From a virus: a stretch of DNA of 22,422 nucleotides. A program made the translations under genes and the position numbers. The DNA is taken from IMG/VR virus record IMGVR_UViG_3300013093_004065, positions 1 through 22,422 of that record; one strand, written 5' to 3'. Under the pieces are notes generated by a model. The model ran no database searches and was not told the origin of the DNA. It worked only from the letters and a program-made list of their open reading frames with translations. Positions 26-18,656 of this stretch are shown here, in pieces (within the stretch, counting starts at the first letter, position 1; every line of letters starts with the position of its first letter).

Positions 26-1678
26 ATGATTACAGTTGTAAAACGTAATGGTGAACGAGTACCACTCGACATCAGCAAAATACAGAGACAGGTAGCACAC
101 GATTGTAAGGGCATTGATGGAGTGAGCCCCAGTATGATCGAAATCAAGGCCCAGATAGAACTACATGATGGCATGAGCACTAAAACCATAGACGAGCTCT
201 TGCTCAAGGCCATGGTGGACCTCATAGACGAAACAGAAAATCCAGAAATCAACAATGTAAACTATCAGTATGTGGCTGGGCGTCAACGTGTGAGTATGTT
301 ACGCAAAGAAGTCTACGGCGAGTATGATCCTCCCAAGTTGTATGACATCATCAAGACCAATGTGTCAGCAGGTATGTATACAGCAGAACTATTAGATTGG
401 TACACAGAAGATGAGTGGAACATCATCGACTTGTTCATAGATCATACCAAGGACGAAGAATATACCTATGCCGCTATAGCACAATTAGCAGAGAAGTATC
501 TGGTGCAGAATCGTGCCACGGGACAGATCTACGAAACACCACAGGTACGTTATGCTGTGGCAGCCGCCACAGCCTTCCATGCTGAACCAAAAGATCGGAG
601 ATTAAAATATGTTAAAGAATATTACGAGTGTGCCTCAGATGGACACTTTACTCTTGCAACACCAGTATTGGCTGGGTTGGGCACTACCACTAAGCAGTTT
701 TCAAGTTGCGTACTTATCAGCTCAGATGACACGTTGGATTCTATATTTGCCGCAGGAGAAATGATGGCCAAGTATGCTAGCAAACGTGCTGGCATAGGAC
801 TAGAGATTGGCCGTATACGTCCTCTCGGCGCCCCTATACGCAATGGAGAGATCAAGCACACAGGTATGATACCATTCTTAAAGAAATGGTTTGCCGATCT
901 TCGTTCATGCTCACAAGGTGGTATCCGTAATGCATCATGCACAGTAACGTTTCCTATATGGCATGCTCAGTTTGAAGACCTTATCGTGCTGAAAAACAAT
1001 CAAGGCACCGAAGAGACACGTGTCCGCCAGATGGACTACTCAGTGGTAGTCAACAAGATGTTCTGGAATCGCTATCGACTGGGCCAGGACATAACTCTGT
1101 TTGATCCACACGAAGTTCCAGACCTGTACGAAGCCTACTATAGAGACAGCCAGGATTTCGAGCAGTTGTATCTAGAATATGAAACACGCACAGACATACA
1201 TAAGAAGGTGTTGTCAGCTGAAGAAATGTTCAAGAATGGCATCTTGAAAGAACGTACTGATACGGGACGTATCTATCTGGTCAATATCGACAATGTGATC
1301 AATCAAGGACCTTTTGATACCGCAACTGATCCAATCTATCAGAGTAACCTGTGTTTAACTGGCGATACCACGATTCAAATCATGAATACAGATGATACTG
1401 TTCAATCAATATCTCTTGCCAGCTTTGTTGAACTATATGAATTTGGAGCAATGACCGGTGTTAAAGTTAGAAGTTCGGATATTTCAACAGGCGCTGTTAC
1501 TTGGAATACGGTAAGTGACGCGGCCAAAACCGCTACAGTAACAGAATTAATCGAAATTGAAGATGAATCGGGTAAAATTATTAGATGTACACCTGATCAC
1601 CAAATATATACAAAGAATCGTGGATATGTTAAAGCCAGCGAGTTATTAGAAACAGACGTGTTATGTGTAGAAAGTTGA
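26..1678 (+). CDS. nrdA: Ribonucleotide reductase alpha subunit, N-terminal part, fused to N-half of a split intein
   Basis: This gene encodes the first 442 residues of the class Ia ribonucleoside-diphosphate reductase large subunit, followed by a 108-residue intein half. The enzyme makes dNDPs for phage DNA synthesis. An ATP-cone begins at the N-terminus (VVKRNGERVPLD). Cys228 in KQFSSC corresponds to the reducible active-site cysteine C225 of E. coli NrdA. The extein stops at YQSNL, immediately before the position of the catalytic thiyl-radical cysteine (E. coli C439), and intein Cys1 (residue 443) follows. The stop after LCVES is therefore the end of the N-intein and not a nonsense mutation. 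The ATG at 26 has AAGG six bases upstream and gives the normal NrdA N-terminus. Function needs protein trans-splicing with the product of 2652-3752, giving a mature protein of about 774 residues. The family and intein assignment is firm; splicing activity is inferred. Confidence 0.95.
   Translation: MITVVKRNGERVPLDISKIQRQVAHDCKGIDGVSPSMIEIKAQIELHDGMSTKTIDELLLKAMVDLIDETENPEINNVNYQYVAGRQRVSMLRKEVYGEYDPPKLYDIIKTNVSAGMYTAELLDWYTEDEWNIIDLFIDHTKDEEYTYAAIAQLAEKYLVQNRATGQIYETPQVRYAVAAATAFHAEPKDRRLKYVKEYYECASDGHFTLATPVLAGLGTTTKQFSSCVLISSDDTLDSIFAAGEMMAKYASKRAGIGLEIGRIRPLGAPIRNGEIKHTGMIPFLKKWFADLRSCSQGGIRNASCTVTFPIWHAQFEDLIVLKNNQGTEETRVRQMDYSVVVNKMFWNRYRLGQDITLFDPHEVPDLYEAYYRDSQDFEQLYLEYETRTDIHKKVLSAEEMFKNGILKERTDTGRIYLVNIDNVINQGPFDTATDPIYQSNLCLTGDTTIQIMNTDDTVQSISLASFVELYEFGAMTGVKVRSSDISTGAVTWNTVSDAAKTATVTELIEIEDESGKIIRCTPDHQIYTKNRGYVKASELLETDVLCVES
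1352..1675 (+). other. N-terminal half of split intein (NrdA site)
   Basis: The 108 residues after the extein begin with Cys1 in block A (CLTGDTTIQI) and carry block B with the TxxH motif (CTPDHQIYT), followed by NRGYVKASEL. These are the Hint-fold splicing motifs of an N-intein. The segment is more AT-rich than the flanking nrdA sequence. Its length and its end match the N-halves of split inteins described from fractured phage genes in marine metagenomes. No endonuclease domain lies within it; an endonuclease gene follows as a separate reading frame. Confidence 0.93.
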
Positions 1679-1711
1679 TTACTAACATAAATAGTATTAC
1701 AGAGACTAATT

Positions 1712-2659
1712 ATGTATAAACAACTTTATAAAGAAATTATTGATATTGCCAAACTAGAGAAGCGAAAGAAAAGTTCTGGAGTGTATTATGAATTACATCA
1801 CGTTGTTCCAGAATTTATGTTTAAGAGTAGGAAAAGAACAGGTCCAGCTGGCCACTTAGATGGTAATCCTAATTCAGTGGATAATCTTGTACTATTAACT
1901 TTTCAAGAACATCTAATGGCGCATTATTATCTATATGAGATATTAAAAGATACACGATACGGATACTCAGCCGGGTCAGCATTACAATTTTTCTTTATTA
2001 AAGCAACGGGTAGTCATATTAGACAACGCACATTATCCAAAGTTGATAAAGAATTTCTAGATAAAATGGCTCATTTACGCGAGATTGGGATTGCAAGTAT
2101 TTCAAAAGCACGAACTGGGAAGATGCCAGTTGTTGATGCCATTACTAGAGAAAAAATTGGGTCAATGCCGGTAAACCATCCAAGAGTGTTATCGGGGGAG
2201 TGGGTTCACCATAGTAAAGGAGTGAAGCAAACTTGGGAATCTCGATCCCAAGTCGGAGAAAATAATGGAAATTATAAAGAAATGACAGCCCAACATTTGG
2301 ATCGTATTTTTCAATGCGTTGGAAAATCATTAATAGATGATACGCATTTTTCTGTTAAAAACTTTTCAAAAAATATTAAACTTGAATTTACTGAATTTAG
2401 AAAAATATCAATCAAGTGGGTAATGAATAATCTGTCTTCAATTGAAAACTTAGTTGCTCAATATAATCACAGAATGAATACTAATATAGTGTATGATCCC
2501 TATTATCGAAGTGCCTCGCAAAGAAGCAAGGCATCTATACAGAATCAAATGTATGCTTGGGTAACTGATGGAACCAAAGATTTACGAATATTAAAAATTG
2601 ATATGAGTGATTTCTTAAATACAAATACAGAATACAAAAATGGAAGAATAAATGCTTAA
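1712..2659 (+). CDS. HNH homing endonuclease lying between the two halves of the split intein
   Basis: The 315-residue protein has an HNH core near its N-terminus: H29-H30 in YELHHVVP, then N58 in SVDNLVLLT, H67 and H71 in FQEHLMAH. This is the usual phage pattern HHxxP...NLVxLTxxEHxxAH. The C-terminal two thirds are basic and not recognised; they probably bind DNA. The gene sits exactly between the N-intein and C-intein genes and overlaps the C-intein gene by 8 bp, so it occupies the place an internal endonuclease domain has in a contiguous intein. A late-promoter-like ATAAATA lies in the 33-bp gap upstream (about 1687-1693). Composition is clearly AT-richer than nrdA. It probably cleaves intein-less nrdA alleles and drives homing of the whole insertion; this is inferred from position. 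Confidence 0.85.
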   Translation: MYKQLYKEIIDIAKLEKRKKSSGVYYELHHVVPEFMFKSRKRTGPAGHLDGNPNSVDNLVLLTFQEHLMAHYYLYEILKDTRYGYSAGSALQFFFIKATGSHIRQRTLSKVDKEFLDKMAHLREIGIASISKARTGKMPVVDAITREKIGSMPVNHPRVLSGEWVHHSKGVKQTWESRSQVGENNGNYKEMTAQHLDRIFQCVGKSLIDDTHFSVKNFSKNIKLEFTEFRKISIKWVMNNLSSIENLVAQYNHRMNTNIVYDPYYRSASQRSKASIQNQMYAWVTDGTKDLRILKIDMSDFLNTNTEYKNGRINA

Positions 2660-2753
2660 GATAAAAAGAATTACCGTAGAACCGACTGATGTTTATGATA
2701 TTACTGTGCCAGAAACTGAATGTTTTTTTGCTAATGACGTATTGGTCCATAAT
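2652..2753 (+). other. C-terminal half of split intein (NrdA site)
   Basis: The 34 residues contain block F (VYDITVPETECFFAND) and block G (VLVHN), with the terminal Asn that cyclises and the penultimate His. Cys35 follows as the +1 nucleophile. The small size and independent Met start are typical of natural split inteins. It must pair with the N-half encoded at 1352-1675. Confidence 0.93.
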
Positions 2754-3752
2754 TGCCAAGAGATCCTACTACCAACCAGACCTTTCCAACGTATTGAAGA
2801 TCCGGCGGGACGCATAGCGTTATGTACACTGGGATCTATCAACTGGGGTGCTTTCAATAATCCACAGCAGATGCGCAAGGCCTGCCGTGTGTTGGTACGC
2901 AGTCTTAGTAATCTACTGCAATATCAAGACTTCTTGTCAGTACAGAGCAAGCTGGCCAATGAAGACTTCGAACCACTAGGAGTGGGTATTACCAATCTAG
3001 CCTATTGGCACGCCAAGCGTAGTTTCAAATATGGAACATCCGAAGCACTCGCCGAAGTCAAGCGTTGGATGGAACACCAGGCCTACTTCCTTACCGAGAT
3101 GAGTGTAGAACTTGCCCAAGAAAGAGGGGCCTGTAAGCGTAGCGAATACACACACTACGGTAAGGGAGTATTCCCCTGGGAACGCCGCTCTGCCGGTGTT
3201 GACGAACTCGCAGACTTCACACCAGTGATGGATTGGGAACCTCTGCGTGAGCGTATGAAGCAGTATGGTATCCGTAATGCCACACTCATGGCCGTGGCTC
3301 CTGTAGAATCCAGCTCAGTTGTTCTAAACTCTACTAATGGTATCGAGATGCCAATGGAGATGATATCTGTGAAAGAATCTAAAGCAGGATCATTCGTCCA
3401 GGTAGTGCCAGAGTATCGCCGACTGAAGAATCGCTATCAGCTCATGTGGGAACAGACAGATTGTGTAGACTATCTCAAGACAGCCGCTGTGTTGGCTGCC
3501 TATATCGATCAGAGTATAAGTACTAATACATTCTATTCGCCGGCGCATTTTGCAGGTGGTAAAGTTCCGGGAACTCTAATCGCTAAGAATTTGATGCTGG
3601 CCTATAAATGGGGTCTGAAGACAATTTATTACTCACTTATAAACAAGGTTGGTTCTAAAAATGTATTAACTACTCAAACTGATAGTTTAGTAAGTGTTGA
3701 ACCTGTTACAATATACGAAGACGACGAAAATTGCGAGGCCTGCAAGCTCTAG
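2652..3752 (+). CDS. nrdA: C-half of split intein fused to ribonucleotide reductase alpha subunit, C-terminal part
   Basis: Residues 1-34 form the C-intein, ending in VLVHN, and Cys35 is the +1 extein residue. After splicing it restores NLCQEI, equivalent to N437-L-C439-x-E441 of E. coli NrdA, so the splice nucleophile is also the catalytic radical cysteine. Cys58 in IALCTL matches E. coli C462, the partner of the redox pair. Tyr326-Tyr327 in KTIYYS are the radical-transfer tyrosines (Y730/Y731). The C-terminal CEAC (361-364) is the swinging dithiol reduced by glutaredoxin, with shorter spacing than in E. coli. The start at 2652 overlaps the endonuclease stop and has GGAAG just upstream. The last 220 bp or so are AT-richer than the rest, next to an inserted endonuclease gene. 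Confidence 0.94.
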   Translation: MLKIKRITVEPTDVYDITVPETECFFANDVLVHNCQEILLPTRPFQRIEDPAGRIALCTLGSINWGAFNNPQQMRKACRVLVRSLSNLLQYQDFLSVQSKLANEDFEPLGVGITNLAYWHAKRSFKYGTSEALAEVKRWMEHQAYFLTEMSVELAQERGACKRSEYTHYGKGVFPWERRSAGVDELADFTPVMDWEPLRERMKQYGIRNATLMAVAPVESSSVVLNSTNGIEMPMEMISVKESKAGSFVQVVPEYRRLKNRYQLMWEQTDCVDYLKTAAVLAAYIDQSISTNTFYSPAHFAGGKVPGTLIAKNLMLAYKWGLKTIYYSLINKVGSKNVLTTQTDSLVSVEPVTIYEDDENCEACKL

Positions 3753-3776
3753 GGTATGATAAATACAGGTGCCGAT

Positions 3777-3818
3777 CGCGATACTGATAATATCCACCGG
3801 CTCTATAACTGTGAGGAG
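3777..3818 (+). promoter_or_regulatory. Conserved 5' leader of homing endonuclease gene (copy 1)
   Basis: This 42-nt segment contains CGCGATACTG, ATATCCA, CTCTA and the ribosome binding site GAGGAG at spacings identical to the segment at 6077-6118 on the other strand. By eye about 32 of 42 positions match without gaps. Similarity continues to the start codon and first codons (CAGCA, then ATGTATTTAC). It lies between the nrdA stop and the GIY-YIG start, so it is an untranslated leader. Function is unknown; a promoter, a translational control element or a homing-associated element are all possible. Confidence 0.7.
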
Positions 3819-3827
3819 TTACAGCAA

Positions 3828-4481
3828 ATGTATTTACATACTATCCCAGCCTATGTCTATTATATTAGGCATATACCAACAGGCAAGTTTTATTACGGAT
3901 TTCGATCTGCACATATAAATGAAAATAGGCGTCCGATTGACGATTTATGGAAGACATACTTTACATCTTCTGTTAAAATAAAAGAATTACGAGAACAAGA
4001 TGATACCTTTGAAGTAAAAATAATTTATGAAGATCTAGATGTAGAAGAAGCATATTGGGCAGAACAAGACTATATAAAACAACATATCAATGATCCGCTA
4101 TGTCTAAACAAGTATTACATTGATAAAGAGAAGGATCAAAAAATATTCAGTATGGCAGGTAAAAGTCATACCGAAGATTCGAAATTAAAAATGAAAGGCA
4201 GGCTTCCCTGGAATAAAGGAAAGAAAATTCCAAGAGGAATTCCAAGTTGGAATAAAGGTATTCCAACTCCTGTTTCTGTAAAAGAACTGATTAGAGAAAA
4301 AACTAAAGGCATTAAAAAGTCCGAAGAAACTAAAGAAAAAATGAGAAAAACAAAATCTAAAGAACACGCACACAATATATCAGTAGCGGCATTACAACGT
4401 CCCAGAACTCCGTGTGAAGTTTGCGGAAGGTTGATAACTAAAGCAAATATCGAAAATCATAGGAAAACACATTATGAGTAA
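3828..4481 (+). CDS. GIY-YIG homing endonuclease between nrdA and nrdB
   Basis: The 217-residue protein starts with a GIY-YIG-type nuclease domain: YVYYIRH stands for GIY and KFYYGFR for YIG including the catalytic Arg, followed by DLWKTYFTSS, a motif common in phage members. The middle holds NUMOD3-like DNA-binding repeats (GRLPWNKGKK and PSWNKGIPTP). The C-terminus has a likely zinc finger, CEVCG...HRKTH. The ATG at 3828 was chosen over the in-frame ATG at 3756 because GAGGAG lies nine bases before it and because the same leader and start context precedes the second GIY-YIG gene. Its stop overlaps the nrdB start by 8 bp. It is AT-rich compared with nrdB. It probably targets the nrdA-nrdB junction of related phages. 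Confidence 0.85.
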   Translation: MYLHTIPAYVYYIRHIPTGKFYYGFRSAHINENRRPIDDLWKTYFTSSVKIKELREQDDTFEVKIIYEDLDVEEAYWAEQDYIKQHINDPLCLNKYYIDKEKDQKIFSMAGKSHTEDSKLKMKGRLPWNKGKKIPRGIPSWNKGIPTPVSVKELIREKTKGIKKSEETKEKMRKTKSKEHAHNISVAALQRPRTPCEVCGRLITKANIENHRKTHYE

Positions 4482-5577
4482 AGCACAATACGACATCTCA
4501 AAAAAAACAAATTATTTGAAAAGGAAGATGTTCTTAGACCCAGAAGGCCCTGTAACTGTACAGAGGTTTGAAGAGGTTAAATATCCTAAGATTCAGGCCT
4601 TTGAAACCTTAGCCCGTGGATTCTTTTGGGTTCCAGAAGAAATCAGCCTTACCAAAGACAAGATCGACCACAAGGACTCATCTGATGCTGTAAAGCATAT
4701 CTTTACTAGTAATCTACTGCGCCAGACAGCATTGGATAGTATACAGGGCCGTGCTCCAGCACAGGTATTCTCGCCAGTTATCAGTATCCCAGAATTAGAA
4801 GCATTGGTTTCAAATTGGAGCTTCTTTGAAACAAACATACACTCAAAGAGCTACAGTCACATCATACGTAATGTCTATGGTGTGCCTAAAGATGAATTTA
4901 ACAAGATACACTATACCAAAGAGATCGTAGACATGGCCGCCAACATCGGCAAGTATTATGATCAGCTACATGCCATCAACTGTGCCAAAGAACTAGGCGA
5001 CACAAATGTCAGCGAAGCACATCACATTAAATCTATCTGGTTGGCACTCAACGCCAGCTATGCTCTAGAAGCATTTCGTTTCATGGTATCCTTCGCAACG
5101 TCATTGGCTATGGTGGAGAACAAGATCTATATCGGCAATGGCAACATCATATCACTGATCCTACAAGATGAGATCTTACACGCAGATTGGACCGCTTGGT
5201 TGATCAACAATGTGATCAAAGATGATGAACGTTTCGTTGCCGCCAAGGCAGAGTGTGAGGAAGAAGTCTATCAGATGTACATGGAGGTGATAGAAGAAGA
5301 AAAAGCCTGGGCTGAATATCTGTTCAAACTAGGTCCTGTTATCGGACTTAATGAAACTATCTTAAAAGATTTCGTAGACTACACAGCATTCACCCGACTC
5401 AAAGAGATTGGCATCAAGTATCAAGGCGAACACCCTAAGTCTAGTCCTATCCCTTGGTTTAACCGACACGTCAACATCAACAAGAAACAATCAGCACTAC
5501 AGGAGACCGAATCGACCAATTATGTCGTAGGTGTCATGAGCGATTCTGTTGATTATGAAGAATTACCAGAACTATAA
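4474..5577 (+). CDS. nrdB: Ribonucleotide reductase beta subunit (class Ia)
   Basis: This 367-residue protein carries the diiron-tyrosyl radical needed by NrdA. By comparison with E. coli NrdB, the ligands are Asp88 (LDSIQGR), Glu119, His123, Glu199 (ALEAFRF), Glu233 and His236 (DEILH), and the radical tyrosine is Tyr127 ([11 protein letters not shown]). Tyr350 near the C-terminus (STNYVVG) matches the radical-transfer Tyr356, and the acidic tail should dock on NrdA. One oddity is that the first metal-ligand pair reads ETNIH, with one residue more between Glu and His than the E. coli ETIH. The ATG at 4474 overlaps the end of the GIY-YIG gene; an internal Met19 is possible, but the longer start gives the usual N-terminal extension. 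Confidence 0.95.
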
Positions 5578-6068
5578 GATTTACACTTACTAAAGTGCCA
5601 TTGCCGCATTTGAGGTAGCCCTCCTGTTTTATTACAATGTGGGCACTCTATTACAGGCTTTGGTACTTTATTTTTTCCTATCTTAGTTTTTCTATTATTT
5701 TCTAACCATTCAGGCGTTTGTTTTCTTCCTAAGTTAGGGCTAGGTTTACCTTTTAATAATGCCGAATGTCGTTGTTTACGCTCATCAGTCCATGTCCTGC
5801 CTTCTGCTCCTTCTCCGCCGTCCGTCATGTTAGCTAGTATACCCGTTCCTAAGTCTTTACGTCCGTACCATCTCACTAATCTACGTTCAATAGCTAGTGC
5901 TCCGACTTCGGATAAGTTATTTTCTACAATAACTATTAGTTCTTTAGATTTAGGTGGTTTAACTTGTCTGCCGTACTTGTAGTAGGCTCTGGTCCCAGTA
6001 CCCTTTCCGATATAGTAAGGTGTACCGTCTGTTCTTAGATAGGCGTATACGTAAAAGCGTAAATACAT
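5553..6068 (-). CDS. GIY-YIG homing endonuclease, antisense after nrdB
   Basis: The 171-residue protein opens with a GIY-YIG nuclease domain ([10 protein letters not shown] then [12 protein letters not shown]), with the expected Arg and a Glu-containing helix ([11 protein letters not shown]). A NUMOD3-like stretch ([20 protein letters not shown]) follows, and a C-terminal zinc finger (CPHC...WHFSKC) closes it. It is transcribed opposite to nrdB and overlaps its last 25 bp, so it is probably expressed from its own signals. GAGGAG sits eight bases before the ATG at 6068, inside a leader shared with the other GIY-YIG gene. It probably homes into the region downstream of nrdB in related phages. 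Confidence 0.88.
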
Positions 6069-6076
6069 TGCTGGTG

Positions 6077-6118
6077 CTCCTCATAGCATTAGAGTAGTTG
6101 GATATGTCCAGTATCGCG
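6077..6118 (-). promoter_or_regulatory. Conserved 5' leader of homing endonuclease gene (copy 2)
   Basis: Read on the minus strand, this 42-nt segment holds CGCGATACTG, ATATCCA, CTCTA and GAGGAG at the same spacing as 3777-3818. The intervening bases differ, so the blocks look selectively kept. It ends at the ribosome binding site of the antisense GIY-YIG gene. Confidence 0.7.
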
Positions 6119-6131
6119 AACTACACTAATA

Positions 6132-6162
6132 TTTTTCAAAGTATTTGATATACTTTGAAAAA
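6132..6162. repeat. Perfect 13-bp inverted repeat, possible operator or hairpin
   Basis: TTTTTCAAAGTAT and its exact reverse complement are separated by five bases (TTGAT). The repeat lies between the divergent GIY-YIG and glutaredoxin genes and covers the -35 region of the glutaredoxin promoter. It lacks a GC-rich stem, so a repressor or activator site is more likely than a terminator, though a weak bidirectional terminator is possible. Confidence 0.6.
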
Positions 6163-6173
6163 CAATATATAAT
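6145..6173 (+). promoter_or_regulatory. Sigma70-like promoter for the glutaredoxin operon
   Basis: TTGATA (6145-6150) and TATAAT (6168-6173) are separated by exactly 17 bp. The predicted start is near 6180, giving a very short leader with AAGGAAAG before the ATG at 6191. The -35 lies in the loop and right arm of the inverted repeat. Confidence 0.6.
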
Positions 6174-6190
6174 AAACAAAGGAAAGAAAT

Positions 6191-6418
6191 ATGTCAAAAG
6201 CGATAGTATGGAGCAAAGATGCTTGCCCCTATTGTGATCAGGCCAAGAACCTGTTAAAATCTAGAGGTATTGAGTTCGAAGAAAGAAATGTCAGTACAGA
6301 TTGGACTAAAGAACAGTTGTTAGAGGCAGTGCCAAATGCACGTACAGTTCCACAGATATTCCTAGATGGAGAACTGGTAGGTGGATTCACAGAATTACGG
6401 GCTAGACTAAATGGATAA
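6191..6418 (+). CDS. Glutaredoxin
   Basis: This 75-residue, single-domain glutaredoxin has the dithiol active site CPYC at residues 13-16, the cis-proline motif TVPQIF and the C-terminal GGFTEL glutathione-binding turn. It would reduce the C-terminal CEAC dithiol of the phage NrdA and so belongs functionally with nrdA and nrdB, from which it is separated only by the antisense endonuclease gene. Its length is normal for phage and bacterial glutaredoxins of the NrdC/GrxC type. The next gene overlaps its 3' end by 8 bp, which suggests one transcript. Confidence 0.93.
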   Translation: MSKAIVWSKDACPYCDQAKNLLKSRGIEFEERNVSTDWTKEQLLEAVPNARTVPQIFLDGELVGGFTELRARLNG

Positions 6419-6929
6419 CGCAGAATTAGAACGCATTAAAGATGCCCTGAGAGGTGTCAAACCATCAGAGATCGTAGAGGACGCTGAGGTAGATCTCAAC
6501 ACCATAGATCTCAGCAAGCTGACTACCAGTGAGCTGAGTGGGTTCAGTTGGCCTAACAATGTAACTATCACAGCAAATACAGGCAGTTATAGTAGTTTTA
6601 CCATACCTACTCTCACCAGCTCGGTATACAACGGTGCTAACATCATAAACACCAACAACACCAATCCCGTTTGGACCACTACTGGTATGCCATTTTCTAA
6701 TCATATTGGAAATACAGGAATTGGTCAACTCAACTTAGACGGTGATGATGCCGACATCCTGATCAAAGGCCGCAGTCTAAAAGAATTCATGGAGAAGATG
6801 GAAGAACGGTTGGCCATCTTGGTTCCAGATCCTGCGAAGCTAGAACACTTCGAAGCTCTCAAAAGAGCCTACGATCATTACAAGACATTAGAAGCACTGT
6901 GCGAAATACCCAAACCAGAAGACAAATAA
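6411..6929 (+). CDS. Phage protein of unknown function with conserved C-terminal helix region
   Basis: This 172-residue protein is not recognised by name. The N-terminal third is acidic. The middle is rich in Ser, Thr and Asn (about 45-105), resembling a beta-rich or linker segment. The C-terminal 60 residues (GDDADILIKGRSLKEFMEKM, then ERLAILVPDP and a helical tail) follow a pattern I associate with small proteins in many tailed phages, where a KGxSL...ERLAIL...P segment recurs. It overlaps the glutaredoxin gene by 8 bp and is followed after seven bases by the next gene, consistent with one operon. A virion or assembly role is a guess. Confidence 0.75.
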   Translation: MDNAELERIKDALRGVKPSEIVEDAEVDLNTIDLSKLTTSELSGFSWPNNVTITANTGSYSSFTIPTLTSSVYNGANIINTNNTNPVWTTTGMPFSNHIGNTGIGQLNLDGDDADILIKGRSLKEFMEKMEERLAILVPDPAKLEHFEALKRAYDHYKTLEALCEIPKPEDK

Positions 6930-6936
6930 GGACAAT

Positions 6937-7227
6937 ATGTTAATCAACAAAGGATTCTCCCAAGGAGATGTAGTAAGTATCAAACTATTAAATGGCGATG
7001 AGATAATCGCCCGTTTCGAATCAGAAACTGTAGATACCATAGTGATCAGTAGACCGTTGGCCATAACCATGAGTGGATCGGGGCTAGGACTAATTCCCTG
7101 GGTGTTCCTAGGCGAGGACAAGCAGGTCACACTAGACAAAAAGAATACCTTTTTCATCGTGGCCAGCAAACAGGCGGCCAGCAAACAGTACATCGAAGAC
7201 ACCACTGGAATCAGCCTGGTTAAATAG
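6937..7227 (+). CDS. Small protein with possible Sm/SH3-like beta-barrel
   Basis: This 96-residue protein is not firmly recognised. The pattern VVSIKLLNGDEIIARFESET, then DTIVISRPLAI and GLIPWVFLGED, is typical of the small Sm-like (LSM/Hfq-like) beta-barrels found in T4-like phages of aquatic bacteria, with a short helical C-terminus. RNA binding would follow from that fold but is not shown. AAGGA lies before the ATG at 6937, and the gap to the upstream gene is seven bases. Confidence 0.72.
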   Translation: MLINKGFSQGDVVSIKLLNGDEIIARFESETVDTIVISRPLAITMSGSGLGLIPWVFLGEDKQVTLDKKNTFFIVASKQAASKQYIEDTTGISLVK

Positions 7228-7249
7228 TATTATTATCTAGGAGAATAAA

Positions 7250-7879
7250 ATGGGAGTTCCAATTCAAACCCCAATGGGGGCCACCGGTGGTGCTGGCGTT
7301 TTTACAGCTATTGACAATGGCGCTGAGTTAACCGCTATCGCTACCGCGATCAATGCTCAAACTGTGGTATTGAAACAGATACAGGGCACTCTAGCTGACC
7401 TGGTCTCAGCTGTAGGAGCCGTTGCCGATACTGCCAAAGCTTCTAGCGGTGCTATCCTGTCCGTTTCGAAAGCTGTAGGTAATGCCAGCAGTGCTGTCAG
7501 TGATGCCGCTGTGACTCAACAGGCCATGGCTGCCAGTGTGATCAAGAAAAATAATTTTGACACAGAAGTGGTTAGCCAGACACTAACACAGAACGGGCAA
7601 GAATTACCAAAATTACCTAGCGTAGCTGATCAAATAAAATCACAACTCAAAGAAGGTACTATAATTTCAGAAGTGTCCAAAGTAGAAAATTTCGTCAAAG
7701 ACAAGATAAACAGCACCCTTGGAGATGCAGAAGATTGGGCTAAACAGGCATTGGGAGTTGATCAGATCATTGCTAATGTGAAGGCACAGGCCAGTGCTAT
7801 CATCACTCCGGCTGTTAAAAGTGCAGAAACCACAGCCCGAAATGTCGCGGCTGCCGCTGGCGTATCATCTGGAACTTAA
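7250..7879 (+). CDS. Ala-rich helical protein, unknown, probably structural
   Basis: This 209-residue protein has no recognised family. It is rich in Ala, Ser, Val and Thr, with long amphipathic helical stretches (about 25-95 and 125-200) and no signal peptide or membrane span. The start at 7250 has a strong AGGAG. It is followed after three bases by the CHAP hydrolase gene, so a tail or baseplate role is plausible by position only. Confidence 0.7.
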   Translation: MGVPIQTPMGATGGAGVFTAIDNGAELTAIATAINAQTVVLKQIQGTLADLVSAVGAVADTAKASSGAILSVSKAVGNASSAVSDAAVTQQAMAASVIKKNNFDTEVVSQTLTQNGQELPKLPSVADQIKSQLKEGTIISEVSKVENFVKDKINSTLGDAEDWAKQALGVDQIIANVKAQASAIITPAVKSAETTARNVAAAAGVSSGT

Positions 7880-9951: not shown

Positions 9952-9988
9952 AAGAATTGTTGTACATCCTTCAAAACGAAAGAATTCT

Positions 9989-10002
9989 GGACGCGGGTTC
10001 GA
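9989..10002 (+). repeat. Fragment of a tmRNA T-arm abutting the HNH gene
   Basis: GGACGCGGGTTCGA differs at one base from the T-arm of the complete tmRNA at 10586-10599. The bases before it (GAATTCT) also resemble tmRNA 3' regions such as that of E. coli. The match ends exactly where the stop codon of the antisense HNH gene begins, and the expected second half of the T-stem is missing. It is either the remnant of an interrupted tmRNA acceptor piece or an attachment-site-like copy of the host ssrA gene. Confidence 0.6.
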
Positions 10003-10006
10003 CTAA
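9998..10006. repeat. Left 9-bp inverted repeat flanking the HNH gene
   Basis: TTCGACTAA here has its exact reverse complement TTAGTCGAA at 10491-10499. The two enclose the HNH coding region almost exactly. A further related GGTTTCGAC lies at 10523-10531. The repeat includes part of the T-loop-like sequence, so the pair may mark element boundaries. Confidence 0.45.
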
Positions 10007-10482
10007 GCCTGTTTTACCATAAACCCACCATTTGTGACACTACCTCTTAAACAAGCGTTTCCAAAGTTGTTAGGATTATAGCCTCGGTCTAAACACCATT
10101 GGCGTAATCCTTCAACTGTTTCAGTAGTACCATCTGGGTGTGTAATCTCGTATAGTTTACCGTTCCAAGTTTTCTTGCCCTTACCTGCCCTTACTTCTTT
10201 CATCTTCTTACTAGCCCTAGCTCTTTGTTCTGGATCTTTCCAGCGAAGATTAGATTTTGCCGCACCTTTACGGCCTCCCTCTATCATAGACTGTTTTGCG
10301 GCATCAAAATTAGCATCAAGTTTAGCCAATCCTTGCCAGGCAACATAGTCCTGCCAGTTGCCGTGTTGTTCATATAGTAGTCGGTGTGCCTCGGCGTGTT
10401 GCTCTATAGTTAGTTCAACTAGATTAGAAGGATCGTCTGACCCGCCTAGGTACTTTGGAACGATGTGATGTTTATGTAGCAT
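10003..10482 (-). CDS. HNH homing endonuclease, antisense, next to the tmRNA
   Basis: This 159-residue protein begins with the HNH signature MLHKHHIVPKYLGG, SNLVELTIEQHAEAH, in which paired His, Asn and His residues form the beta-beta-alpha metal fold. A basic middle part (KKMKEVRAGKGKK) follows. The C-terminal domain (LYEITHPDGTTETV, then LRQWCLDRGYNPNNF) is a DNA-recognition module common in phage endonucleases. The ATG at 10482 is preferred because the fold starts there; longer in-frame starts at 10533 (ATG) or 10542 (TTG) would add residues encoded by an inverted repeat and the tmRNA promoter. No clear ribosome binding site is seen. Its stop codon directly abuts a tmRNA T-arm fragment, so its target is probably the tmRNA gene. 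Confidence 0.85.
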   Translation of the reverse strand: MLHKHHIVPKYLGGSDDPSNLVELTIEQHAEAHRLLYEQHGNWQDYVAWQGLAKLDANFDAAKQSMIEGGRKGAAKSNLRWKDPEQRARASKKMKEVRAGKGKKTWNGKLYEITHPDGTTETVEGLRQWCLDRGYNPNNFGNACLRGSVTNGGFMVKQA

Positions 10483-10490
10483 AATATTAT

Positions 10491-10499
10491 TTAGTCGAA
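10491..10499. repeat. Right 9-bp inverted repeat flanking the HNH gene
   Basis: TTAGTCGAA is the exact reverse complement of 9998-10006. Overlapping it, GTCGAAACC (10494-10502) is inverted relative to GGTTTCGAC at 10523-10531, so it can also form a hairpin around the -35 element of the tmRNA promoter. Confidence 0.45.
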
Positions 10500-10514
10500 A
10501 CCGAGTAAAAACTC

Positions 10515-10543
10515 TTGACAATGGTTTCGACATACTATACAAT
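10515..10543 (+). promoter_or_regulatory. Strong sigma70-type promoter of the tmRNA
   Basis: TTGACA (10515-10520) and TACAAT (10538-10543) lie exactly 17 bp apart. Transcription would begin near 10550, just before the acceptor piece. The flanking inverted repeat GTCGAAACC/GGTTTCGAC encloses the -35 and might be an operator or a homing remnant. Confidence 0.7.
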
Positions 10544-10606
10544 AAATACTTATATGATTGTATGAAGTGGATTGAAACGGGTCTTGGACGCGAGTTCGAA
10601 TCTCGC

Positions 10607-10648
10607 CATCTCCACCTAAGTGTATCGAGGTATATTTAGGTGGGGATG
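10607..10648 (+). other. Extended hairpin across the tmRNA permutation junction
   Basis: CATCTCCACCTAA (10607-10619) pairs with TTAGGTGGGGATG (10636-10648) over 13 bp with one G-U pair. The acceptor stem is thus continued by six more pairs into the intervening segment, closed by a 16-nt loop. This would hold the precursor together before end processing cuts out the spacer. Confidence 0.75.
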
Positions 10649-10751
10649 AATTTGGTTTTCGACAGGGTCAAGAGTAATGAAATGGACAGTCCGGCAATGT
10701 AGAAGCCGTTAGGGTTGGGGGAACTCGGCCGAAGACACAAATAACGTAAAC

Positions 10752-10784
10752 GCCAACGACGAACAGTTCGCATTGGCAGCCTAA
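10752..10784 (+). other. tmRNA tag-peptide reading frame
   Basis: The frame reads ANDEQFALAA followed by TAA. The preceding in-frame codons GTA AAC could extend the tag to VNANDEQFALAA, because the resume codon cannot be fixed by eye. The ending ALAA is the standard degron for ClpXP and ClpAP. The form ANDExFALAA is typical of betaproteobacterial tags. Confidence 0.9.
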
Positions 10785-10825
10785 ACACTGCCTAGGGTAG
10801 GAAATACCTCGTAACAGAAACCACC

Positions 10826-10852
10826 AAAAAGCGGCTATTATGGCCGCTTTTT
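10826..10852 (+). terminator. Rho-independent terminator of the tmRNA
   Basis: AAAAAGCGGC and GCCGCTTTTT form a perfect 10-bp stem around a seven-base loop, ending in the T-run. It lies right after the coding piece and closes the tmRNA transcription unit. Confidence 0.9.
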
Positions 10853-10936
10853 CATAGGTGTAATCTCATATAGGATATATAATATAGAATATATCTTAAT
10901 CTAAAAGATGTATCATAACAAAAAGGAAATCAAATC

Positions 10937-11672: not shown

Positions 11673-12140
11673 ATGTCTATCACAATTAAAAATCTAGAGA
11701 GTGCGCTGGCGGGTGAGAGCCAAGCTCACATCAAGTACCGCTACTTCGCCCGGATCGCTCGTGAAGAAGGATTTGAAGAAATCGCACAGCATTTTGAGCA
11801 CACTGCAGATCAAGAACTCAAACACGCTTGGGGTCATTTGGAACTGTTGATAGGTAAACCAACAACCAAAGAATGTTTGGAAAAAGCCATCGAAGGTGAG
11901 ACCTATGAGTTTACCACGATGTACCCAGAATTTGAAAAGAATGCTGTATTGGAAGGTAACCATGAAGCTGAAAAAGAAATGCAAGATCAGATCGCAGAAA
12001 GCCAAGAACATGCAGAACAGTTTATCGCGGTCCTACGCAAGGCCGAAAAACGTTTCGCCGCACTGAAAAAAGTGGAAGAGCGTCACGCCCGTGCCTATGA
12101 AACAAAATTACAAGATTTATTACAAACGGAGACAAGATAA
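11673..12140 (+). CDS. Rubrerythrin (ferritin-like diiron protein)
   Basis: This 155-residue four-helix protein has the rubrerythrin pattern [32 protein letters not shown] (ExxH), then [29 protein letters not shown] and [11 protein letters not shown]. These supply most of the carboxylate and His ligands of a diiron peroxidase centre. The second ExxH is imperfect, with Glu-x-x-x-His spacing. The usual C-terminal rubredoxin domain is absent and is encoded by the next gene, which starts inside the stop codon (TAATG). The pair should reduce hydrogen peroxide in the cytoplasm. It may protect the diiron-tyrosyl NrdB or the infected cell from oxidative damage, which is inferred. A strong AAGGAGA precedes the ATG. 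Confidence 0.9.
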
Positions 12141-14481: not shown

Positions 14482-14886
14482 ATGCAGGGCAGTATCACAC
14501 TGGTCACCCCACCTGATATTTTTGAAAACTCCAATGCCAGCATCTTGTTTGTGCATCTAGATGATGCTGGACAGGATCTAGTAAGCCGTTGGCTAAAGAC
14601 CAGTAGTCTAGATGAAGATATCAATATCTATGTCTACAACGGAGAAACCAATATAGCTTGGTTTTTGTACGCACTGAATCGATGCGAATATAAGTATATA
14701 AATGTAGACGGAGCAAATGATATATCACGAGCCATCATGGGCTATGCTGTAGGCAAGAGCGGTATCTGTTATGAAACACGAGATAAAAATATCGCTGCCG
14801 TATATAGCCACATCAATCCCAATCGTGTAAGATCCGTTGATGAATTTTTAGAAAGGGCATTCGGTGAGCAAACAACTAAATCATAG
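14482..14886 (+). CDS. Small acidic protein of unknown function
   Basis: This 134-residue protein is not recognised. It has an alpha/beta character (ASILFVHLDDAGQDLVSRWL, INIYVYNGETNIAWFLYALN, YKYINVDGANDISRAIMG) and no signal peptide or membrane span. It begins two bases after the membrane-protein stop and overlaps the clpX start by 23 bp, so translation is coupled. It could be an adaptor or partner for the ClpX encoded next, but that rests on position alone. Confidence 0.7.
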   Translation: MQGSITLVTPPDIFENSNASILFVHLDDAGQDLVSRWLKTSSLDEDINIYVYNGETNIAWFLYALNRCEYKYINVDGANDISRAIMGYAVGKSGICYETRDKNIAAVYSHINPNRVRSVDEFLERAFGEQTTKS

Positions 14887-16096
14887 CTGTCATTTCTGCG
14901 GTAAGAGCAAAGAGGATGTAGAAAAACTCATCGTGGGAGACAACTCCAGTATCTGTAATGACTGTGTGGTACTGTGTGTCAACATCTTAGAAGATGAAAA
15001 GATCAAGAAGTTTCCAGCAGACAAGATCACTGTGAACCCTACCCAGTTGAAAGATTATCTAGACGACTACGTGATAGGACAAGATGAAGCCAAGATTTCC
15101 CTGTGTGTAGCAGTGGCACAGCATTTCAAACGCATCAATAATCCCAGCAAGAAGATCAGATTGGAAAAGACCAATGTGCTCATGCTGGGACCCACAGGCT
15201 GTGGCAAGACCATGATGGTGCGCAAGATAGCCGAATACTTAAATGTACCTTTTGCCATCTGTGATGCTACAGGCATAACCGAAGCGGGCTATGTGGGCGA
15301 CGATGTGGAAAGCATACTCAACAGATTGATCTCAGCCGCTGACGGAGATCTGGACAAGGCCGAACGTGGCATCATCTATATAGACGAGATAGACAAGATC
15401 GCTCGCAAAGGTGAAAATGTCAGCATCACCCGAGATGTATCAGGTGAGGGAGTACAACAGGCTCTGCTGAAAATGATCGAAGGCAGTATCATGCGAGTGC
15501 CTAGCACAGGAAAACGCAAGCATCCCGGTTCTGATATGCAGGAAATCAACACCGAAGGAATCTTGTTTATCTGTGGAGGAGCCTTCGTCGGTCTAGATAA
15601 GATCATAGAAGAGCGTCTCAATAAACGCAGTATTGGGTTCTCGTCATCATTGACCACTACCCAGACTCCAGATGATGTCTATAGATCAACCACTACCAAA
15701 GACATCATCAAGTTTGGATTTATTCCGGAATTCGTAGGTCGTTTTGGTCTAACAGTATCAGTCGATGAGTTAGGCACGAAAGAATTGGTAAAGATCTTAG
15801 TAGAACCCAAGAACAGCATCATCAAACAGTATCAATACATCTTTGAACTGGACAGCATCGATTTAGAATTTGAAGATACAGCCCTAGAAGAGATAGCACA
15901 GCAGGCCAAGGCCCTGAAGACCAATGCTCGTGGACTTAAAAACATCATAGAAAAGACCCTGCTTCCCTATCAATTTGATGCTCAAAACCTAGTTGCACGT
16001 GGTTTAACCAAAATAGTAGTAAATAAAGACACAGTAAATGGCAGTCCAGCTGTCATGGTATTCGACAAAAAAGCAAAGATCAATGAGCAGAAATAA
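14864..16096 (+). CDS. clpX: ATP-dependent unfoldase ClpX
   Basis: This 410-residue, full-length ClpX unfolds tagged proteins and feeds them to ClpP. It has the N-terminal zinc-binding domain (Cys9, Cys12, Cys31, Cys34), Walker A GPTGCGKT (109-116), pore-1 loop GYVGDD (142-147, with Tyr143), Walker B IIYIDEID (170-177), the RKH loop (218-220) that engages ssrA-type tails in E. coli, the IGF loop (257-259) that docks on ClpP, the arginine finger in GFIPEFVGRF and sensor-2 Arg356. No ClpP gene is visible, so it would use the host protease. The start is GTG at 14864, inside the end of the preceding gene. A tmRNA encoded 4 kb upstream makes the ALAA tags this enzyme should recognise. Confidence 0.95.
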   Translation: MSKQLNHSCHFCGKSKEDVEKLIVGDNSSICNDCVVLCVNILEDEKIKKFPADKITVNPTQLKDYLDDYVIGQDEAKISLCVAVAQHFKRINNPSKKIRLEKTNVLMLGPTGCGKTMMVRKIAEYLNVPFAICDATGITEAGYVGDDVESILNRLISAADGDLDKAERGIIYIDEIDKIARKGENVSITRDVSGEGVQQALLKMIEGSIMRVPSTGKRKHPGSDMQEINTEGILFICGGAFVGLDKIIEERLNKRSIGFSSSLTTTQTPDDVYRSTTTKDIIKFGFIPEFVGRFGLTVSVDELGTKELVKILVEPKNSIIKQYQYIFELDSIDLEFEDTALEEIAQQAKALKTNARGLKNIIEKTLLPYQFDAQNLVARGLTKIVVNKDTVNGSPAVMVFDKKAKINEQK

Positions 16097-16322
16097 CAGA
16101 GACGCGGTACGCGGTATCAAGATCATCGTGGGCGACATGCCCATAAACACCGCCCTACGCAAATTCAAACAGCGTGTAGATGACAGTGGAAAATTGGAAG
16201 ATGTCAAGGCCAAGATGTTCTACGAAAAACCCACTACCGAACGCAAGCGTAAGAAAGGGGCTGCCAAGGCCCGTTGGAAGAAGAAACTCCGAGACCAACA
16301 ACTTCCCAAGAAGATGTATTGA
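16083..16322 (+). CDS. rpsU: Ribosomal protein bS21
   Basis: This 79-residue protein matches bS21: a short strand (GIKIIVGDMPINTALRKFKQ), a helix with DSGKLEDVKAKMFYEKPTTE and a strongly basic C-terminal helix (RKRKKGAAKARWKKKLRD). The FYEKP-x-RKRKK-A motif is the family hallmark. In bacteria bS21 sits near the 16S rRNA 3' end on the 30S subunit and influences initiation; phage copies are known from aquatic tailed phages and may exchange with host S21 to favour phage mRNAs. The ATG at 16083 overlaps the last 14 bases of clpX, so the two are co-translated. A longer open frame upstream lies wholly inside clpX and is not used. Confidence 0.92.
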   Translation: MSRNNRDAVRGIKIIVGDMPINTALRKFKQRVDDSGKLEDVKAKMFYEKPTTERKRKKGAAKARWKKKLRDQQLPKKMY

Positions 16323-16422: not shown

Positions 16423-17163
16423 ATGATCCCAAAGCAATTATTGAATTCTACAGGAATCCATCGGACACACGATACCTATCAAAATATGCTCGATCACTAT
16501 AGGGCATTACGAAACCCGGAACTTTTAGAAAAAACAATTAAAACATTAGAGACAGAACTTAACTATCCCTTTTATAGATTTTTCAGTAATTATGGTACCG
16601 GTATCGGCGAAACTATGGAAGAAGTCTCTGCCCAAAAATTTATAGACATTATTCCAAAAAAAGATGGTAAGAAAAAATCCAAAGTATATGAAAATTATAA
16701 CAAACAGCATAATAAAAAATCTAGCAATTATGATTTTTTATTTGTAAAAGATGGAATAATTAAAAGTGGAGAAGCTAAAGTAATACGAGCCGCTGAAAGT
16801 AAGCCAGTACAAAATAATAAAATTTACGAACTACCTTCATCATTAGAAGAACGAGCTTTAACTTATTCTGAAAAAAATAAATCCGGAAATCAATCATTTC
16901 AGCAAACTAAAGCAGAACTATTTGATTATTTACTAGGTATTGTAATATATGCAGATCAGGTTGATTTTTATTTGGTACCATCTGATGATATCAAATCTGG
17001 AAAACTTAAGATCATCAATCAACATGCAGGTGCTATTTTAGAAGATGGGAGTACTAATGAAGGCCATTTATCTGTTAAAGATTTAGACTCTTATAAAATA
17101 TTATCAGTGTATTCTGAAAAAGAATTACTAGAGGCTGATAGCATTAATAAATATATTTCATGA
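16423..17163 (+). CDS. Probable type II restriction endonuclease
   Basis: The 246-residue protein contains a PD-(D/E)XK-like nuclease core: Asp104 in NYDFLFV and Glu117-x-Lys119 in GEAKV, with the hydrophobic strands expected around them. It overlaps by four bases an N6-adenine methyltransferase gene, the usual layout of a type II restriction-modification system. The specificity is not recognised. Composition is very AT-rich, unlike the genes on either side, pointing to recent transfer. It has its own consensus promoter. On a phage it could cut competing phage or host DNA lacking the methyl mark. The family call rests on motif plus context. Confidence 0.78.
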   Translation: MIPKQLLNSTGIHRTHDTYQNMLDHYRALRNPELLEKTIKTLETELNYPFYRFFSNYGTGIGETMEEVSAQKFIDIIPKKDGKKKSKVYENYNKQHNKKSSNYDFLFVKDGIIKSGEAKVIRAAESKPVQNNKIYELPSSLEERALTYSEKNKSGNQSFQQTKAELFDYLLGIVIYADQVDFYLVPSDDIKSGKLKIINQHAGAILEDGSTNEGHLSVKDLDSYKILSVYSEKELLEADSINKYIS

Positions 17164-18656
17164 CAGTTACTTTTAAAGACCTTAATAAAAAGAAAAATCA
17201 ATTAGGTCAATTTATGACTCCGGATGTTATATCACAAGTTATGATAGATAATAATACATACTCCGGTCTTATAATTGAGCCCAGTTTTGGTCTTGGATCT
17301 TTTTTATACAAATTAGAGTCAAAATATCCAAAAAATATTAAGATAGGTATCGAATACGATCCGGAATTGTTTGATCAGTATACTGGATCATCAACTGTGC
17401 TAAACCAATCATTTTATCAATTTCAAATTCCAAAAAATATTAAATTTGATTCAATATCATTTGTTGGAAATCCCCCATATAGGACTCCAGCTTATTCACT
17501 TAAAAGTGAAGATAAAGATCTAATTAAGGAATTAGTTAAAAAATACAAACTAACAGGAGTAAAAGAAGAAGCAATTTTTTTTATTGCGTATGCTGTTAGT
17601 CTTATTGAACAAGCAGATGTTCCTGGGGTTATTCATTGGATATTGCCTAAAACAATTTTTGAAAACAGCAGTAAAGCATTTACTAATTTTAGAAAATTTT
17701 TGAATATACATGCACCGGTTATCGAAATGATCGATATATCTGAGAATTATCCAGATGTAGCACAACCGTTATGTATTGCTAAATTTTTAGTGAATCAAAA
17801 AACAAATACAAACTTAACTGATTCTTTTATATTAAAAGATACTATTACATTTCAAGAAATTTTTATTAAAACGTCGCTAGGTAGTGTTCCTTGCGAAAGT
17901 ATATTGCTCTCATGTAAGGACGAACCATTGTCTAGTTTTAAAGAAAGACTTGAGAATATTTTTCAAAAAAACATCAATATTCGAACTGAATTAAAATATA
18001 ATGGAAAATATCATCTACGAGCACTTAGTGGATCATCGGCTACAGAAAAATTTAAAATTTTAGATTCCTATGTTTCTGAAATAAAAAATACCATCAATGT
18101 TTCTGATTTTTCAAATGACGCTTATTATAAGCCTATTTCTCATAGAACAGAAGTCCGTTGGTATTTTAGACATCCCGGATTGACTAAGGTTAGTTTTATA
18201 TATATAATAAATCCTAATCCAGGTAAATCTTTTTACTTTCCTGGAAATCCTACAAAAACATCAACTGATTATTTTGGATATTGCGAATATGATATAAATC
18301 GAAATAGTAGCCCCGGAGCGAATAGAACTGTTTCTATAGAAAATATTGAAAAAAATATTACTCCAAAATTTAAAAAGTTTTGGCAAGAAAATACAACAGC
18401 GCCGATAACCGAAATTTTTAATTATATATTACATATTAGCAAAAGTAGTTGGTATAAAAATTATAAGTCAAAATATCAAAGATTTTACTTTGGAATACCA
18501 AAAACTTTTGACACCTCTTGGAAACCAGAATTAAATAAATCTTGCCTTAACTGGGATAGTATTATTGAACTAACTGCTTCAGAAATTATTATTTCTACAG
18601 AGCAAACATCTATCAATCTTTTAAATTCTCTTTTCATCGAAGAATATTCTTCTTGA
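17160..18656 (+). CDS. N6-adenine DNA methyltransferase (gamma type, type II R-M)
   Basis: The 498-residue enzyme has motif X-like LGQFMTP (residues 15-21), motif I EPSFGLGS (40-47) for S-adenosylmethionine binding, an acidic motif II residue in IEYDP, and catalytic motif IV NPPY (104-107). This is the gamma order with a C-terminal target-recognition region of about 300 residues. It methylates adenine in an unknown sequence and protects DNA from the nuclease encoded upstream. The start at 17160 overlaps the nuclease stop (ATGA), so translation is coupled; expressing the nuclease first is unusual but seen in some systems. It is as AT-rich as its partner. The next promoter overlaps its last codons. 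Confidence 0.92.
   Translation: MTVTFKDLNKKKNQLGQFMTPDVISQVMIDNNTYSGLIIEPSFGLGSFLYKLESKYPKNIKIGIEYDPELFDQYTGSSTVLNQSFYQFQIPKNIKFDSISFVGNPPYRTPAYSLKSEDKDLIKELVKKYKLTGVKEEAIFFIAYAVSLIEQADVPGVIHWILPKTIFENSSKAFTNFRKFLNIHAPVIEMIDISENYPDVAQPLCIAKFLVNQKTNTNLTDSFILKDTITFQEIFIKTSLGSVPCESILLSCKDEPLSSFKERLENIFQKNINIRTELKYNGKYHLRALSGSSATEKFKILDSYVSEIKNTINVSDFSNDAYYKPISHRTEVRWYFRHPGLTKVSFIYIINPNPGKSFYFPGNPTKTSTDYFGYCEYDINRNSSPGANRTVSIENIEKNITPKFKKFWQENTTAPITEIFNYILHISKSSWYKNYKSKYQRFYFGIPKTFDTSWKPELNKSCLNWDSIIELTASEIIISTEQTSINLLNSLFIEEYSS

What the first reader, a model, noticed from the sequence alone, without database searches (positions are those of the whole stretch)
26..3752. Fractured nrdA: split intein with an HNH endonuclease gene between the halves, cut at the catalytic cysteine
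The N-extein ends at NL and the C-extein starts with the Cys equivalent to E. coli C439, so the thiyl-radical cysteine is also the +1 splice nucleophile. Without trans-splicing neither half can be active. Split inteins with a free-standing endonuclease in the gap are known from marine metagenomes. Here the nuclease is HNH type, and its gene overlaps the C-intein gene by 8 bp. The junction is close to immune to deletion, because only precise loss restores the enzyme.
Basis: partly seen in the sequence, partly recalled or inferred. Interest (0 to 1): 0.82.

Follow-up and report, generated by a model that had tools for sequence, protein, structure and literature searches.

The report
Phage reductase gene split by intein
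A phage gene for a DNA-building-block enzyme is cut in two exactly at its catalytic cysteine, the two protein halves almost certainly join themselves again, and a DNA-cutting gene sits in the gap; this is a known kind of arrangement, but its many relatives, including a cultured phage, show the cutter being gained, swapped and lost while the split remains.

Summary
The window is a whole 22.4 kb IMG/VR phage fragment. NrdA is encoded by two ORFs (26-1678, 2652-3752) carrying N- and C-halves of a class 1 intein. The second half begins with the residue aligned to E. coli NrdA Cys439. An HNH homing-endonuclease-type ORF (1712-2659) lies between them and overlaps the second half by 8 bp. The exteins sum to 774 aa. 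This is a new member of the known 'fractured gene' kind (Dassa et al. 2009), not a new kind. Most likely the halves trans-splice and the nuclease spreads the cassette into intein-free nrdA. Of 51 relatives of the nuclease in IMG/VR, 49 lie in split inteins at this RNR site. Yersinia phage TG1, complete and cultured, has the same layout and no second RNR large subunit. The cassette has moved between distant NrdA lineages, and the nuclease partly independently of the intein. In relatives a T4-late-promoter-like motif and a hairpin over the nuclease start suggest late-only expression; in the window the motif is present but the hairpin is weak.

The parts
26..1351 (+). NrdA N-extein (442 aa), ends ...IYQSNL
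   Evidence: PDB alignment to E. coli R1 up to residue 438/439, E 1e-129; Pfam RNR domains
1352..1678 (+). N-intein (108 aa, starts CLTGDT, block B CTPDH) and stop codon
   Evidence: TIGR01445 over cut-off; invariant C1, T80, H83 in relatives
1687..1693 (+). ATAAATA, T4-late-promoter-like core upstream of the HNH gene
   Evidence: invariant in 15 of 15 aligned leaders; only 6 copies in the whole window
1685..1715 (+). Weak hairpin over the HNH gene start; strong in relatives
   Evidence: window z -0.96; 13 relatives z -2.0 to -7.1; covariation count
1712..2659 (+). HNH homing-endonuclease-type gene (315 aa)
   Evidence: PHROG 655 E 2e-16; invariant HNH residues; purifying selection on relatives
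2642..2646 (+). GGAAG, Shine-Dalgarno-like site for the C-half, inside the 3' end of the HNH gene
   Evidence: SD-like motif upstream of the C-half start in 20/20 carriers against 30% background
2652..2753 (+). C-intein (34 aa, ...VLVHN)
   Evidence: TIGR01443 over cut-off; invariant H33 N34 C35
2754..3752 (+). NrdA C-extein (332 aa), first residue = Cys439 equivalent and +1 nucleophile
   Evidence: PDB alignment starting at residue 439 of 2r1r, E 3e-70
3756..4481 (+). Second, separate homing-endonuclease-type gene (GIY-YIG) between nrdA and nrdB
   Evidence: PHROG 314 1e-18, SegE_GIY-YIG 5e-5, just below cut-off
4474..5577 (+). nrdB
   Evidence: Pfam Ribonuc_red_sm 4e-38

Best explanation
A fractured nrdA. 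Two precursor proteins are made: NrdA(1-442)-N-intein and C-intein-NrdA(443-774). The intein halves associate and trans-splice by the class 1 pathway: Cys1 N-S shift, attack by the +1 Cys, Asn cyclisation, S-N shift. This joins SNL to CQEI and rebuilds a 774-residue NrdA whose radical cysteine was the splicing nucleophile. The HNH protein between the halves is a homing endonuclease that cuts intein-free nrdA of co-infecting phages near this site, and repair copies the whole cassette across. In relatives the nuclease is probably made only late (late-type promoter plus start-masking hairpin), and the C-half is translated from its own ribosome site in the nuclease gene's tail. Shown: anatomy, conservation of catalytic residues, lateral movement, repeated nuclease loss. 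Inferred: splicing, cleavage, timing.
For: All class 1 splicing residues present and invariant. Both halves conserved and in the same order in dozens of contigs. Host protein in intein-free kin runs SNLCQEI across the junction. The only RNR large subunit in complete TG1 is the fractured one. Nuclease dN/dS 0.05-0.2 in the 7 pairs that can be scored. Intein presence needs at least 13 changes on the NrdA tree. L175 vs L173: NrdA 44%, intein 78%, HNH 70%; NrdA data reject the site-B carriers as one clade (p 8.5e-105) although their inteins form one (100/98). Synonymous divergence of nuclease and intein is below that of the exteins in L180/L184, L180/L183 and L179/L189. Leader ATAAATA 15/15.
Against: No splicing or cleavage data. 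The nuclease has no solved structural match and no Pfam hit. In the window the start hairpin is no better than shuffles and exact TATAAATA is absent. Flank comparison with intein-free L016 is mosaic, so co-conversion at the junction is not proven.
Confidence: 0.88

Rival explanations
1. Genes-in-pieces without splicing: the two NrdA halves assemble non-covalently, as in phage Aeh1, and the intein halves are relics.
For: Aeh1 NrdA split by mobE is active (PMC2988022).
Against: Intein residues C1, T80, H83, His-Asn and +1 Cys are invariant and the intein is under purifying selection, not expected of relics. The active-site Cys would sit behind 34 extra residues.
Confidence: 0.06
2. A dead nrdA: the phage relies on host reductase and the locus is a decaying nest of selfish genes.
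For: Campylobacter phage Cpt10 has a degenerate intein-bearing nrdA (PMC3653736). This locus carries three nuclease-type genes around nrdA, nrdB and grx.
Against: All frames open; low dN/dS on exteins in the pairs that are not saturated (0.04-0.10); nrdB and glutaredoxin intact.
Confidence: 0.04
3. The HNH protein is not the homing enzyme for this site but a T4-Mob-like nuclease that uses the gap as a safe harbour and targets elsewhere.
For: The HNH tree disagrees with the intein: L043 and L187 carry site-B-type HNH beside site-A inteins; AU p 0.0024 against a B-only HNH clade. GIY-YIG genes occupy the same gap in L102, L106, L114 and Klebsiella phage KP13-7.
Against: 49 of 51 HNH relatives in IMG/VR lie in split inteins at this RNR site, and L175/L173 show intein and HNH moving together.
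Confidence: 0.2

Closest known systems
Fractured genes with split inteins (Dassa et al. 2009, GOS metagenome; NrdA-2, gp41-1, NrdJ-1, IMPDH-1)
   Same: Conserved enzyme gene cut by a split intein with a separate endonuclease gene between the halves; NrdA among the targets (7 intein-interrupted nrdA cited in PMC3653736).
   Different: From memory of its abstract, half of those loci carry Vsr-like nucleases; here it is HNH, in a T4-type phage fragment, and cultured relatives exist. The paper itself was not held.
Yersinia phage vB_YenM_TG1 nrdA (KP202158)
   Same: Same order, same SNL|C site, homologous intein halves (32% and 56%) and HNH (30%); deposited as two RNR alpha-subunit ORFs plus an HNH ORF.
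   Different: Strong start hairpin with exact TATAAATA (z -6.6); more diverged NrdA.
Pseudomonas phage MIJ3 split PolB intein with HNH gene (PMC6892783)
   Same: HNH gene between two halves of a split-intein enzyme gene in a cultured phage.
   Different: Other host gene, other intein.
Aeh1 nrdA split by mobE (PMC2988022)
   Same: HNH gene splits nrdA.
   Different: No intein; halves function non-covalently.
T4 I-TevI / Aeh1 mobE late-expression switch (PMC2988022)
   Same: Late promoter and hairpin masking the ribosome site in read-through mRNA; same design upstream of the HNH gene in relatives.
   Different: The window copy keeps the promoter-like core but only a weak hairpin.
NrdJ-1 intein (PDB 8ubs)
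   Same: Closest solved intein, E 1e-17 over residues 26-141 of the joined halves; from memory a natural split intein of a class II RNR.
   Different: Different RNR class.

Membership tests
Class 1 intein | Cys1, block B TxxH, penultimate His, terminal Asn, +1 Cys/Ser/Thr | tested here: met
   CLTGDT..., CTPDH, VHN|C; invariant in relatives
Class 1 intein | Self-splicing activity | not testable with these tools
   Needs expression
Naturally split intein | Halves in separate ORFs broken between blocks B and F | tested here: met
   108 + 34 aa, stop at 1676-1678, own start at 2652
Fractured gene | Split intein in a conserved enzyme gene with a free-standing endonuclease gene in the gap | tested here: met
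   same order in dozens of relatives
Fractured gene | Intein-free alleles exist with an exact junction | tested here: met
   SNLCQEI in 81 and SNLCCEI in 70 intein-free loci; DNA junction compared
HNH homing endonuclease (PHROG 655, T4 Mob-like) | HNH residues and sequence membership | tested here: met
   H29/H30, N58, H67/H71 invariant; PHROG 655 2e-16; no Pfam match
HNH homing endonuclease (PHROG 655, T4 Mob-like) | Beta-beta-alpha metal fold by structure comparison | tested here: inconclusive
   Model pLDDT 81 with strand-strand-helix at 27-30, 59-62, 64-78; Foldseek found no PDB match
HNH homing endonuclease (PHROG 655, T4 Mob-like) | Site-specific cleavage and homing | not testable with these tools
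   Lateral movement is consistent with it
I-TevI-type late switch | Late promoter core upstream of the nuclease start | tested here: met
   ATAAATA 15/15; exact TATAAATA in several relatives, not in the window
I-TevI-type late switch | Stable hairpin masking the ribosome site or start | tested here: inconclusive
   Relatives z -2.0 to -7.1, window z -0.96

The most novel reading that the evidence does not exclude
The RNR radical-cysteine codon hosts a reversible cycle. An HNH (or GIY-YIG) gene with its own late-expression switch sits in a split intein and moves between RNR lineages, partly independently of the intein; it is repeatedly deleted except for the tail that holds the ribosome site of the C-half; and the halves sometimes fuse back into a one-piece mini-intein. 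Split inteins would then be a lasting by-product of nuclease traffic, not only a dead end.
Probability: 0.4. Interest if true: 0.6.

Novelty: new member of a known kind. Interest (0 to 1): 0.45.

Why it matters
It ties an arrangement first described from metagenomes to a cultured phage (TG1) where splicing can be tested during infection, and gives a graded series (nuclease present, swapped, truncated, gone, halves joined) that makes the origin and persistence of split inteins testable. The set also offers many new split-intein pairs with Cys at +1 for protein engineering.

Tried and rejected
(1) First thought that site-B carriers had mutated residue 440 to Cys to suit the intein; rejected, since 70 intein-free relatives have SNLCCEI natively. 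(2) Looked for a nuclease operator resembling the homing site over the promoter, as in I-TevI; no signal. (3) Foldseek on the HNH model: nothing. (4) Junction co-conversion: window vs intein-free L016 is low (68-86%) over ~350 nt upstream and 93-100% just downstream, but other patches occur elsewhere, so inconclusive. (5) Linker scar in contiguous forms: L093's linker matches a stretch inside the L005 nuclease gene (14/15 nt; 2 of 2000 shuffles), not its end as first thought; L099's match is not significant (271/2000). Re-fusion is therefore only moderately supported, mainly by nesting among fractured forms and the start Met retained in L093. (6) Intein data alone do not reject B+L043+L187 as one clade (p 0.26), so independent movement of the nuclease rests on identities and the HNH test. 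(7) Dassa 2009 is not in the paper library. (8) A family search on the more distant RNR hosts failed for a frame error and was not repeated, so their RNR class is not settled.

Full report
OBSERVATION. Three overlapping or adjacent ORFs on the + strand: 26-1678 (550 aa), 1712-2659 (315 aa), 2652-3752 (366 aa). The last two overlap by 8 bp. The first is NrdA 1-442 plus a 108-aa N-intein. The third is a 34-aa C-intein plus 332 aa of NrdA. In alignments to solved structures the N-half ends at SNLC of E. coli-type R1, and the first C-extein residue is position 439, which is the thiyl-radical cysteine (established knowledge of class I RNR). TIGR01445 and TIGR01443 call both intein halves over their cut-offs. 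The middle ORF is a PHROG 655 homing endonuclease with invariant H-H...N...H...H. The window is one linear 22,422-bp IMG/VR record, a fragment; a second contig with the same layout is 99.95% identical over 8.7 kb.

RELATIVES. A scan of IMG/VR with the HNH profile found 51 loci; in 49 the HNH lies beside or between halves of a split intein in an RNR large-subunit gene. The scan is seeded by conserved peptides and contains near-duplicates, so 49/51 is a statement about this nuclease subfamily, not about all HNH genes. In bacterial genome contigs one of nine hits (L377, labelled a Prevotella MAG, perhaps a phage contig) has both intein halves; the others are partial matches without an intein. Class Ia-like hosts dominate; some hosts are much more distant RNRs cut at the homologous SNL|C. 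Cultured phages: Yersinia phage TG1 (complete; deposited as two RNR alpha-subunit ORFs and an HNH ORF), Klebsiella phage KP13-7 (GIY-YIG gene in the gap), Campylobacter phage CC_R7 (two ORFs of unknown type in the gap). Dickeya phage XF4 has a one-piece intein at the same site.

TWO REGISTERS. Site A (window): SNL|C..., +1 = Cys439. Site B (e.g. L173): SNLC|C..., +1 = residue 440. Intein-free kin of most site-B hosts read SNLCCEI natively (70 loci) and those of the window's group SNLCQEI (81 loci), so both registers restore the host protein exactly.

MOVEMENT. On a 136-row NrdA tree intein presence needs at least 13 changes, 6 of them forced by starred branches, against 27.5 for shuffled labels. 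Identities: L175/L173 NrdA 44, intein 78, HNH 70; window/L092 47, 73, 60; window/L043 85, 77, 52; L187/L179 89, 60, 85; L043/L179 70, 60, 80. The NrdA data reject the site-B carriers as one clade (p 8.5e-105) while their inteins form a clade with 100/98 support; HNH data reject a B-only HNH clade (p 0.0024); intein data do not reject B+L043+L187 (p 0.26). Synonymous divergence in nuclease and intein is lower than in the flanking exteins in L180/L184, L180/L183 and L179/L189 (0.25-0.61 vs 0.62-0.87), and nuclease dN/dS is 0.05-0.2 in the pairs that are not saturated. So the cassette travels, and the nuclease is kept functional.

LOSS. L007: N-half stop and C-half start abut, with 15/15 nt of the nuclease gene's 3' end left. 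L010/L011: 32-codon remnant. L008: nuclease tail directly after what looks like the N-half end, at the contig edge. All retain the tail that carries the ribosome site of the C-half; an SD-like motif stands upstream of the C-half start in 20/20 carriers against 30% background. L093-L095, L099 and, in a distant RNR, L108 have both intein halves in one ORF; L093 and L099 lie among fractured forms in the intein tree. Hence the nuclease gene is readily lost; only the intein needs precise removal.

EXPRESSION. Between the N-half stop and the HNH start, ATAAATA is invariant in 15/15 aligned leaders. In relatives a hairpin covers the ribosome site or start, with the motif beside or inside it (z -2.0 to -7.1), and shows some covariation. 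This is the I-TevI / mobE design (PMC2988022): read-through early mRNA would hide the nuclease start and late mRNA would expose it. In the window the hairpin is weak (z -0.96), exact TATAAATA is absent, and ATAAATA is not enriched window-wide, so for the window itself this is inference from kin.

NO BACK-UP ENZYME. The complete TG1 genome has one RNR large-subunit locus, the fractured one, and no NrdD; seven relative contigs of 31-361 kb likewise show only one each. For the window phage this is unknown.

STATUS. Known kind (fractured genes; Dassa 2009, cited through PMC3653736 and PMC6892783), new member, with comparative detail that I did not find described in the papers held.

Noticed in passing
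window 10501-10854 (+): A permuted, betaproteobacterial-type tmRNA gene (RF01850 128 bits, RF04321 106 bits; tag ANDEQFALAA), pointing to a betaproteobacterial host or gene source.
   Followed up: partly
window 10003-10542 (-) and 9987-10005: An HNH-type gene lies divergently beside the tmRNA; just beyond its 3' end is TCTGGACGCGGGTTCGACT, nearly the tmRNA T-arm (about 10582-10602), as if the nuclease insertion had copied or displaced a tmRNA fragment.
   Followed up: partly
window 14864-16096 (+): A full ClpX homologue with its zinc finger (TIGR00382 and PRK05342 well over cut-off) in the same phage as its own tmRNA: both ends of an ssrA tagging and degradation route.
   Followed up: no
window 16038-16322 (+); 11673-12140 (+): Phage-borne ribosomal protein S21 and a rubrerythrin-like protein.
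   Followed up: no
window 16423-18656 (+): Eco57I-like DNA methylase with an upstream 246-aa ORF of no known family, possibly a restriction-modification pair.
   Followed up: no
window 3756-4481 (+) and 5553-6068 (-): Two more homing-endonuclease-type genes around nrdB; the nrdA 3' end next to the first one (about 3529-3752) is more diverged from intein-free L016 than most of the gene, perhaps a conversion tract.
   Followed up: partly
L386 (Klebsiella phage KP13-7, OP617745) 2029-7559: nrdA in four pieces: one break of unknown type after SCSQG, a site-B split intein with a GIY-YIG gene behind a hairpin with AATAAATA in its loop, and a second intein break before TSSQ with an HNH-like gene.
   Followed up: partly
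L177, L178, L223, L275, L288-L290: A second interruption of nrdA about 10-16 codons downstream of the catalytic cysteine; its nature was not determined.
   Followed up: no
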